Assembly (NCBI GenBank): GCA_021827745.1
Contig: JAKAUI010000001.1
Location: 1 to 39,539, forward strand
Length of the DNA: 39,539 bases
DNA from: Bacillota bacterium
GTDB lineage: Bacteria > Bacillota > Sulfobacillia > JAJZYS01 > JAJZLH01
Direction: 5' to 3'
This document shows positions 2,934-25,505 of this stretch, piece by piece. The notes below the pieces were generated by a model that was not told the origin of the DNA, searched no databases, and worked only from the letters and a program-made list of their open reading frames with translations. Within the stretch, counting starts at the first letter, position 1. Each line of letters starts with the position of its first letter. Both the position numbers and the translations under genes were made by a program.

Positions 2934-3728
2934 GTGAACCTACCCGGTCTCAGCCCATACATCCTGACCATCGGATCGCTCCAGATTCACTGGTATGCCG
3001 TGTTCATCGTCTGCACCGTCGTCATCGGCTACTCCTATCTGTACTCGCAGAAGGAGCGCCTGGGGCTGACCGAAGATCTGGTCACCAACGCCATTTTGTG
3101 GGCGGTGGTCGGTGGCGTGATCGGAGCCCGCATCGTGTTCGTGATCTTCAATGAGCCCGGCTGGATCATCCACGACCCGGTGCAGATCCTGCGCATCTAC
3201 GACGGCGGCCTGGCCTTTCACGGGGCGGTCGCAGGCGGCCTGTTCGCCGCCTGGCTGTACCTGCGCAAGAAGGGCGTGTCGTTTGGCCGCTTCATGGACT
3301 TCCTGATCCCCGGACTTGCCACCGGCGTGATGCTGGTCCGCATCGGCAACATCTTCAACCACGAGGTGCTGGGCCACTTCAGCATCTACGCCCCGGGCGG
3401 CGAGTGGCCGGCCCAGCTGATCGGCGGCGCCATCGGCGTGGTGCTGATCTTCCACTACCTCTGGTACGCCAAGCGCAATCCCCCGCCGGGCGCCCAGTTC
3501 TGGTCCGCCCTCTTCTACTACAGCCTGCTGCGCGGCCTGATCGGAGAGACAGTTCGGGCCAACCCGACCTGGTTCGTGCACTACCTGAACCCGGTCTGGG
3601 GCATCGGCTTCATCACGGTCGAACAGTTCTTCACACCGCTCTTGGTGGCTGGCACCTACTACTTCTGGTGGCGAGCGGTAAGGCAAGGGAGGGCCCAGCC
3701 GGTTGCGACTGGTCAGATCCAGGCGTGA
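2934..3728 (+). CDS. lgt: Prolipoprotein diacylglyceryl transferase
   Basis: Polytopic protein with IHWYAV near the N-terminus, GGLAFHGAVAGG, RIGNIFNHEVLG. Confidence 0.93.
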   Translation: MNLPGLSPYILTIGSLQIHWYAVFIVCTVVIGYSYLYSQKERLGLTEDLVTNAILWAVVGGVIGARIVFVIFNEPGWIIHDPVQILRIYDGGLAFHGAVAGGLFAAWLYLRKKGVSFGRFMDFLIPGLATGVMLVRIGNIFNHEVLGHFSIYAPGGEWPAQLIGGAIGVVLIFHYLWYAKRNPPPGAQFWSALFYYSLLRGLIGETVRANPTWFVHYLNPVWGIGFITVEQFFTPLLVAGTYYFWWRAVRQGRAQPVATGQIQA

Positions 3729-23501: not shown

Positions 23502-25505
23502 GTGGACCGGAACAACTCGTTGGAACTGGCCCTTGCCCAGATTGAGCGGCAATTCGGCAAGGGAGCCGTCATGAAGCTCGGCGACCAGGCACATCTGTAC
23601 GACATCGATGTGATCCACACCGGATCGATCGTGCTCGATAACGCCCTCGGCGTCGGCGGCGTGCCGAGGGGCCGGGTGGTGGAGATCTTTGGGCCGGAGT
23701 CGAGCGGCAAGACCACGGTCGGGCTGCACATCATCGCCCAGGCCCAGCAACAGGGCGGAACCGCCGCCTTCATCGACGCCGAGCACGCCCTGGACCCGCT
23801 GTACGCCAAGAATCTCGGCGTCAACGTGGACGAGCTTCTGATCTCGCAGCCGGACACCGGCGAGCAGGCGCTGGAGATCGTCGAGGCCCTGGTTCGCAGC
23901 GGCGCCATCGACGTGATCGTAGTCGACTCGGTGGCCGCTCTGGTGCCGCGGGCCGAGATCGAAGGGGAGATGGGCGACTCCCATGTCGGCCTGCAGGCCC
24001 GCCTGATGTCACAGGCCCTGCGCAAGCTGACCGGCGTGATCTCGAAGAGCAACACCTGCGCCATCTTCATCAACCAGATTCGGGAAAAGGTCGGTGTCAT
24101 GTTCGGCTGTCTCGACTATGAGACGCCAGTGATCGGGGCGGACGGCCGACGCAGGCCGATCGGGCGCCTGGTCAACCGGCGCGAGTCGCCGCCGATCCTC
24201 ACCTTCGACCGCCAGAGCGGAGAGGTGCGGGAGGGGAAGATCGTCGGCTGGTACCGCAACGGAGCGGCCCCGGCCTTCGTCGAGATCAAGGTGGCCAGCG
24301 GCAAGGCGGATCCCCACCGGCTGCGGCTCACGCCCAACCACCCGGTGCTCACCCCCGATGGGTTTCGGCCCGCTGGCGAGCTGGCGGTCGGGGACCTGGT
24401 GATGACCGTCACCGAGGGCCCTGGCGACGCCATGTGGTCGGTGGCCCGCGGCTGGCTGATCGCCGGCGGCCGGCTGCATACCGACTCTGGAGCAGTCAAG
24501 GTGCGAAGCCCGCGGCTCGACTTTGGACTTCTGACCTGGGAGAAGCGGCTCGCCCCGGGCCTCAGCCGGGCCAGGGCGCATCTCGAGACACCGGCGCTGC
24601 CGGTTGCCCTGCTTCAGGACGAAGTGGCCGATCTGGGGCGGCGGGCCTATCATCAGGCCTTCTTTGAGCACCTGGACCCCTTGGCCCTGGCCATCTGGAC
24701 GATCGAGGGCGGACGCCTGGAGGGAGAGCGCCTGGTTCTGCCGGCCCATCTGACGCCGGAGGGACTGGCCGCTCTGGCCAAGACGCTGTCCGATCGCTTC
24801 GGGGTGGACTGCGAGATGCGGATCAGCGGGCTTAAGTCGGACGTGGTGGTGGCCGGCGAGGGGCTGGGACGGCTGCTTGGGCTGGTTGCGCCGTTCATGC
24901 CGCCCGAGCCGGGAGAGGACAAGGAACCTCCGGCCCAGGTCGGCGGCTGGCAGGTGGCAGCACGGGCGGTCGTCAGCGTCGAGGCCAATGTGGCCCTGCG
25001 CTCCCGGCAGCGCTTTGACATCCAGGTCGAGCACAGCCACACCTTCGTGGCCAGCGGCGTGATCGTGCACAACAGTCCGGAGACCACACCGGGCGGCCGG
25101 GCGCTCAAGTTCTACTCCTCGGTCCGGCTGGACGTGCGTCGGATCGAGGCGATCAAGCTTGGCACCGAGGTGGTCGGCAACCGGACCCGGGTGCGGGTGG
25201 TGAAGAACAAGGTGGCGCCGCCGTTTCGGGTCGCAGACTTCGACATCCTGTACGGCCGCGGCATCTCGAAGGAAGGCAGCCTGATCGACCTCGGCACCGA
25301 GACCAAGGTGCTGCAAAAGAGCGGGTCCTGGTTCAGTTACGGCGACCTCAGGATCGGTCAGGGACGGGAGAGTGCGCGCGACTATCTGAAGAGCCACCCG
25401 GAGCTGGCAGACGAGATCGACGCCAAGATCCGGGAGACCCTGCTCAGTGCCCCGGTGCACGTGATCGGACCGAGCCCGCAGGACGAGCCGGACGAAGAGG
25501 TCTAG
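23502..25505 (+). CDS. recA: Recombinase RecA precursor containing an in-frame intein
   Basis: [13 protein letters not shown] Walker [36 protein letters not shown]; the block ...VGVMFG / [25 protein letters not shown] is interrupted by 322 aa. Spliced length would be 345 aa. Confidence 0.97.
24108..25073 (+). mobile_element. RecA intein (322 aa), endonuclease region apparently degenerate
   Basis: Block [14 protein letters not shown] (Cys1), block [25 protein letters not shown], block [17 protein letters not shown], block G VIVHN followed by Ser+1. Confidence 0.96.

What the first reader, a model, noticed from the sequence alone, without database searches (positions are those of the whole stretch)
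24108..25073. 322-aa intein in RecA at the MFG/(N)PETTPGG site
The RecA block [24 protein letters not shown] is interrupted in frame. The insert starts with Cys (CLDYETPV), carries block B (TPNHPVLT), block F ([15 protein letters not shown]) and ends VIVHN, followed by Ser instead of the usual Asn as the +1 nucleophile. From memory this matches the insertion point of the Mycobacterium leprae RecA intein rather than the M. tuberculosis one. Protein splicing would restore a 345-aa RecA.
Basis: partly seen in the sequence, partly recalled or inferred. Interest (0 to 1): 0.7.

Follow-up and report, generated by a model that had tools for sequence, protein, structure and literature searches.

The report
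RecA intein with dead homing endonuclease
The RecA DNA-repair gene of this bacterium carries an intein (a protein segment that cuts itself out after translation) at a site known from mycobacteria and other bacteria; its usual DNA-cutting 'homing' part has lost its catalytic residues, so it looks like an old, no longer mobile member of a known family.

Summary
The ORF at 23502-25505 (667 aa) is the only recA found in a 97%-complete 1.62 Mb genome. It is interrupted in frame by exactly 322 aa (24108-25073), placed between the residues equivalent to E. coli RecA G204 and N205. The insert has every sequence mark of a class 1 intein: Cys1, TxxH, block F Asp/His, His-Asn and Ser+1. All three held species of the genus share this dead form. 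In the same order, two other genera carry same-site inteins with one or both aspartates present, scattered among intein-free relatives. Same-site relatives occur in Actinomycetota (including mycobacterial-type RecA), Omnitrophota, Kaiserbacteria, Thiohalocapsa and a viral contig. The pattern fits the late, fixed stage of the intein homing cycle. Ser+1 is not odd: all 28 intein-bearing alleles read have it, and 13 of 87 readable intein-free class relatives do too. The dead domain keeps its exact length and low dN/dS (0.10-0.21) in three species, as if it still serves folding or splicing. Splicing itself was not tested. Verdict: a new member of a known kind.

The parts
23502..24107 (+). N-extein: RecA residues 1-202 (GTG start), ending ...[10 protein letters not shown] inside the L2 DNA-binding loop
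   Evidence: TIGR02012 1.8e-163 and PF00154 1.8e-135; exact junction from alignment to solved RecA chains; L2-loop assignment from general knowledge of RecA
24108..25073 (+). Class 1 intein, 322 aa, inserted at the M. leprae-type RecA site (between residues equivalent to E. coli G204 and N205)
   Evidence: predicted model pLDDT 83.2 with Hint and LAGLIDADG matches
24108..24143 (+). Splicing block A with Cys1 ([12 protein letters not shown]), the first nucleophile
   Evidence: C1 invariant in 10/10 same-site inteins; TIGR01445 6.6e-9
24330..24353 (+). Splicing block B, TPNHPVLT (Thr75, His78)
   Evidence: T75 and H78 invariant in 10/10 same-site inteins
24420..24962 (+). Degenerate LAGLIDADG homing endonuclease domain (intein residues about 105-285; boundaries approximate)
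   Evidence: PF03161 7.2e-8 over cut-off; Foldseek I-SceI 4.1e-6 and intein endonucleases; dN/dS 0.10-0.21 among three species
24441..24476 (+). First LAGLIDADG motif, [12 protein letters not shown]: catalytic Asp replaced by Gly120
   Evidence: aligned to GxLLGDGxL / GxLMGDGxL of same-site inteins; identical loss in G001 and G002
24681..24716 (+). Second LAGLIDADG motif, [12 protein letters not shown]: catalytic Asp replaced by Gly201
   Evidence: aligned to LALAIWYMDDGxL of same-site inteins; identical loss in G001 and G002
25014..25058 (+). Splicing block [16 protein letters not shown] (Asp304, His311)
   Evidence: D304 and H311 invariant in 10/10
25059..25073 (+). Splicing block G, VIVHN (penultimate His321, terminal Asn322)
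   Evidence: TIGR01443 5e-5 over cut-off; H321 and N322 invariant
25074..25505 (+). C-extein: Ser+1 and the rest of RecA ([14 protein letters not shown]...)
   Evidence: alignment to solved RecA from precursor residue 525 on; Ser+1 in 27/27 intein-bearing alleles plus viral contig L176

Best explanation
The insert is a class 1 intein in the only recA found in this genome. The 667-aa precursor is predicted to splice itself. Cys1 attacks the preceding Gly202 bond to form a thioester (activated by block B His78 and block F Asp304/His311). Ser+1 takes over the N-extein. Asn322 cyclises with help from His321, releasing the 322-aa intein and joining Gly202 to Ser+1 to give a 345-aa RecA with an intact L2 loop. 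The central LAGLIDADG domain once drove homing into intein-free recA alleles, but both catalytic aspartates are now Gly, so homing by its own nuclease should be over and the element is inherited vertically in this genus. Shown here: the sequence anatomy, exact site, family membership, fold prediction, loss of both aspartates in all three species, no second RecA found, patchy distribution elsewhere. Inferred: that it splices in the cell, that the nuclease is inactive, and that the dead domain persists because it supports folding or splicing.
For: Family matches over curated cut-offs. Exact RecA junction. All splicing residues invariant across ten same-site inteins. AF2 model (pLDDT 83.2) whose best PDB matches are endonuclease-bearing inteins (TliVMA 3.2e-14) and the Mtu RecA splicing domain (TM about 0.8 by target length). 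One RecA only in G000; the split is also in G001 and G002. Both exteins under strong constraint, dN/dS 0.015-0.107, so RecA is still used and must be restored. Aspartate loss in all three g1 species, with G008 keeping both and G006 one. Inteins in only 5 of the 93 RecA-bearing genomes, all in one order and interspersed with intein-free congeners. The homing-cycle model predicts nuclease decay after fixation (PMC8966425).
Against: No splicing experiment or protein evidence. Only three genomes of the genus are held, so 'fixed' is a weak statement. PF14890 is just under its curated cut-off (34.8 against 35.8 bits). AF2 pTM is only 0.63, and parts of the endonuclease domain are below pLDDT 50. A homing nuclease with unusual catalytic residues cannot be excluded by sequence alone.
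Confidence: 0.93

Rival explanations
1. The insert is a real intein whose dead endonuclease domain has been co-opted, for example as a DNA- or stress-sensing element that makes RecA splicing conditional, so the element now benefits the host.
For: The endonuclease region keeps identical length with no indels in three species and dN/dS 0.10-0.21 (95% intervals all below 0.31) although both catalytic residues are gone. Conditional splicing has been reported for the related RadA intein (PMC5790916, abstract only).
Against: Low dN/dS is equally expected if the domain is only a folding scaffold for the Hint domain, a described situation called mutualism (PMC8966425). dS near 1 makes pairwise estimates rough. 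Nothing here points to a specific signal.
Confidence: 0.15
2. The insert is an intein that no longer splices, and RecA works unspliced or is not needed.
For: No direct evidence of splicing; the intein branch is very long in the tree (3.03 changes per site against 0.27 for the RecA of the genus).
Against: Every splicing residue is conserved in three species. Both exteins evolve under strong constraint, dN/dS 0.015-0.107. The insertion splits the L2 loop, essential for DNA binding by general knowledge. No second RecA was found.
Confidence: 0.04
3. The insert is a lineage-specific structural insertion in RecA, or an assembly artefact, without intein function.
For: None found.
Against: Intein N- and C-terminal family matches, Hint and LAGLIDADG fold matches, and 78-85% identical but distinct copies in two other species' assemblies.
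Confidence: 0.01

Closest known systems
RecA inteins at the M. leprae-type site in Actinomycetota (about 364 aa; mycobacterial-type example L110)
   Same: Same insertion codon (MFG/SPE), Cys1, HN/S junction, LAGLIDADG domain at the same place; blastp 26-30% identity over full length, E about 1e-28 to 1e-34
   Different: About 40 aa shorter in the endonuclease domain and adjoining linker; both catalytic aspartates lost here while most actinomycete copies keep them (L118 is another with altered motifs)
Same-site RecA inteins in the same order (G006, 358 aa; G008, 361 aa)
   Same: Same site, about 30% identity, same architecture
   Different: They keep one (G006) or both (G008) catalytic aspartates and are sporadic among intein-free congeners; the window's genus has the dead form in 3/3 species
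Mycobacterium tuberculosis RecA intein (PI-MtuI)
   Same: Nearest solved sequence relative of the splicing domain (3e-9; TM about 0.8 by target length)
   Different: Different insertion site in RecA, stated in the literature for M. leprae against M. tuberculosis (PMC5874633) and known generally; Cys rather than Ser at +1 (PMC8529194)
PhoVMA intein (degenerate LAGLIDADG intein)
   Same: Lacks the presumed active-site residues in both LAGLIDADG helices while the domain fold is kept (PMC8966425)
   Different: Different host protein, site and organism; splicing of PhoVMA without its endonuclease domain was tested, not so here

Membership tests
Class 1 intein | In-frame insert at a conserved site of a host protein, exact extein continuity after removal | tested here: met
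   Precursor residues 202 and 525 align to adjacent RecA residues
Class 1 intein | Cys/Ser at position 1; block B TxxH; terminal His-Asn; Ser/Thr/Cys at +1 | tested here: met
   C1, T75-x-x-H78, H321-N322, Ser+1; +1 Ser in all intein-bearing alleles read
Class 1 intein | Hint fold and sequence family match | tested here: met
   TIGR01445 and TIGR01443 over cut-off; Foldseek to Mtu RecA splicing domain; PF14890 just under cut-off
Class 1 intein | Protein splicing activity | not testable with these tools
   Needs expression and detection of the 345-aa RecA and the free 322-aa intein
RecA intein allele at the M. leprae-type site | Insertion between MFG and SPE of the L2 loop | tested here: met
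   Same junction in L049-L055, actinomycetes and L110; L110 RecA matches Mtb RecA 1-205
RecA intein allele at the M. leprae-type site | Homology of the intein with the M. leprae RecA intein itself | tested here: inconclusive
   M. leprae record not in hand; 27.9% identity, E 1e-32, to a mycobacterial-type same-site intein L110
Active LAGLIDADG homing endonuclease | LAGLIDADG domain present | tested here: met
   PF03161 over cut-off; Foldseek to I-SceI
Active LAGLIDADG homing endonuclease | Acidic catalytic residue in each LAGLIDADG motif | tested here: not met
   Gly120 and Gly201 replace Asp in the window and in G001 and G002

The most novel reading that the evidence does not exclude
The endonuclease-dead domain is no longer a decaying relic but is kept by selection as a working part of the intein: an obligatory scaffold for splicing, or a DNA- or stress-responsive switch that ties RecA maturation to DNA damage.
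Probability: 0.2. Interest if true: 0.5.

Novelty: new member of a known kind. Interest (0 to 1): 0.27.

Why it matters
One bacterial order here shows three states side by side: intein-free RecA, sporadic inteins with one or both endonuclease catalytic residues, and a genus where a dead-endonuclease intein is in every species held. That makes it a compact natural test of the homing-cycle model. The retained, constrained dead domain lets one ask directly whether such domains become necessary for splicing. The same-site relatives across several phyla and in one viral contig add to the case for cross-phylum spread of this allele.

Tried and rejected
Papers with the M. leprae insertion details (Davis 1994; PI-MleI) are not held, so the M. 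leprae comparison rests on a mycobacterial-type relative. Whether the genus intein and the G006/G008 inteins descend from one invasion could not be decided: they group together with support 49/0 in one tree and not in another, and the branch is very long. An idea that Ser at +1 marks past intein loss was not pursued: Ser is common among intein-free members of the order (5 of 7) but also occurs in eight intein-free RecAs elsewhere in the class, and chemistry alone explains Ser in intein-bearing alleles. An assembly artefact and a RecA structural insertion were rejected. One NCBIfam call with a wrong frame gave nothing.

Full report
WHAT IS THERE. The window lies on contig C10 of a 1.62 Mb, 97%-complete genome. 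Its two nearest held relatives match MAG contigs titled 'Bacillota bacterium MAS3.bin149' and 'MAS3.bin100' (contig lengths 5206 and 17696 agree with G001:C21 and G002:C65). ORF 23502-25505 (667 aa, GTG start) is RecA by TIGR02012, 1.8e-163, and is the only RecA found in the genome. It is interrupted by 322 in-frame codons, 24108-25073. In alignments with solved RecA chains, precursor residue 202 and residue 525 fall on adjacent RecA residues, so the insert is exactly residues 203-524, between the residues equivalent to E. coli G204 and N205 and after G205 of M. tuberculosis RecA (1g18). By general knowledge this is the L2 DNA-binding loop, so an unspliced precursor should not be a working recombinase. 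Neighbouring genes are ordinary: cinA, a LigT/2'-5' RNA ligase-type gene, recX and the RNase Y gene.

IT IS AN INTEIN. The insert matches the intein N-terminal and C-terminal splicing regions over curated cut-offs (6.6e-9 and 5e-5), and LAGLIDADG_2 over its cut-off (7e-8). The nearest solved sequence is the M. tuberculosis RecA intein (3e-9). A model from ten same-site sequences has mean pLDDT 83.2 and pTM 0.63. Its best PDB matches are endonuclease-bearing inteins (TliVMA, 3.2e-14), the Mtu RecA splicing domain (TM about 0.8 by target length) and, for the middle part, I-SceI. Cys1, Thr75/His78, Asp304/His311 and His321-Asn322 are invariant across ten same-site inteins.

THE +1 SERINE. All 27 parsed intein-bearing alleles and the viral contig L176 have Ser, as the chemistry requires Ser, Thr or Cys. 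In intein-free RecAs of the same class, 74 have Asn and 13 have Ser, with one of 88 not read. Ser is thus a natural alternative at this position.

THE MIDDLE DOMAIN IS A DEAD HOMING ENDONUCLEASE. Same-site relatives read GxLLGDGxL and LALAIWYMDDGxL in the two LAGLIDADG motifs; the window reads GWLIAGGRL and [13 protein letters not shown]. The catalytic Asp of each motif is Gly (residues 120 and 201), and G001 and G002 share both changes. The domain and linker are about 40 aa shorter than in relatives. Within the same order G008 keeps both aspartates and G006 only the first. That the nuclease is inactive is inferred from this loss, not measured.

DISTRIBUTION. Among 101 genomes (own plus relatives, down to the class), 93 gave a RecA and five of these are split at this site: the three species of genus g1, and G006 and G008, which are from two genera of another family. 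In those two genera the intein-bearing RecAs sit among intein-free congeners in the RecA tree. With the intein profile, 3 of 399 genomes sampled across the phylum have a full-length match, all in g1. Same-site inteins were also read in MAGs labelled Omnitrophota, Actinomycetota and Kaiserbacteria, in two Thiohalocapsa records, in at least 17 actinomycete genomes, and in a RecA on a 73.5 kb viral contig, L176. The literature held says the M. leprae and M. tuberculosis RecA inteins differ in size, sequence and location (PMC5874633).

HOW IT MOST LIKELY WORKS. Standard class 1 splicing yields a 345-aa RecA and a free 322-aa intein. Both exteins are under strong constraint (dN/dS 0.015-0.107), so the host still needs the spliced product. 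The endonuclease would once have spread the element; its loss together with presence in 3/3 species fits the homing-cycle model, where nuclease function decays after fixation (PMC8966425). The genus intein sits on a very long branch (3.03 changes per site against 0.27 for the RecA of the same genus), as expected for long decay, though a separate invasion from an unsampled donor is not excluded: the trees do not resolve whether it shares an entry with G006/G008.

WHAT IS LEFT OPEN. The dead domain still has identical length in the three species and dN/dS of 0.10, 0.17 and 0.21, with bootstrap intervals below 0.31; the estimates are pairwise and rough because dS is near 1. A pure relic should drift more freely. 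The simplest reading is that the domain helps the Hint domain fold or splice, which has been described as mutualism in other inteins (PMC8966425). A regulatory role is possible but has no direct support here.

REPEAT OF THE PATTERN. The same genome has a second intein, in a vitamin B12-dependent-type ribonucleotide reductase (C55:31079-32092; host identified by eye from its sequence), shared by G001 and G002. Its two LAGLIDADG motifs also lack the usual Asp in all three species, while some relatives keep one or both. Both inteins of this genome therefore look endonuclease-dead.

VERDICT. The finding is real and correctly interpreted. It is a new member of a known kind, with a modestly useful evolutionary setting.

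Noticed in passing
G000:C55:31079-32092 (L043:2080-3093), outside the window: A second intein (338 aa) in a vitamin B12-dependent-type ribonucleotide reductase, shared with G001 and G002; both of its LAGLIDADG motifs lack the usual aspartate in all three species, while some relatives (L261, L262) keep one or both.
   Followed up: partly
L176 (IMGVR_UViG_3300035698_014029), match at 3001: A 73.5 kb viral contig encodes a RecA with a 348-aa intein at the same site, with GDG and MDD motifs present: a possible vehicle for spread of this allele.
   Followed up: partly
L053, L055 (Thiohalocapsa), L049 (Omnitrophota), L051 (Kaiserbacteria): Same-site RecA inteins across distant phyla, all with Ser at +1.
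   Followed up: partly
L118 (actinomycete genome G599): Another same-site RecA intein whose LAGLIDADG motifs look damaged (GSLMGRG, WYLDAG).
   Followed up: no
Intein-free RecAs of the class: Position +1 is Ser in 5 of 7 intein-free RecAs of the intein-bearing order but mostly Asn elsewhere in the class; this could be pre-adaptation or a trace of past intein loss.
   Followed up: partly
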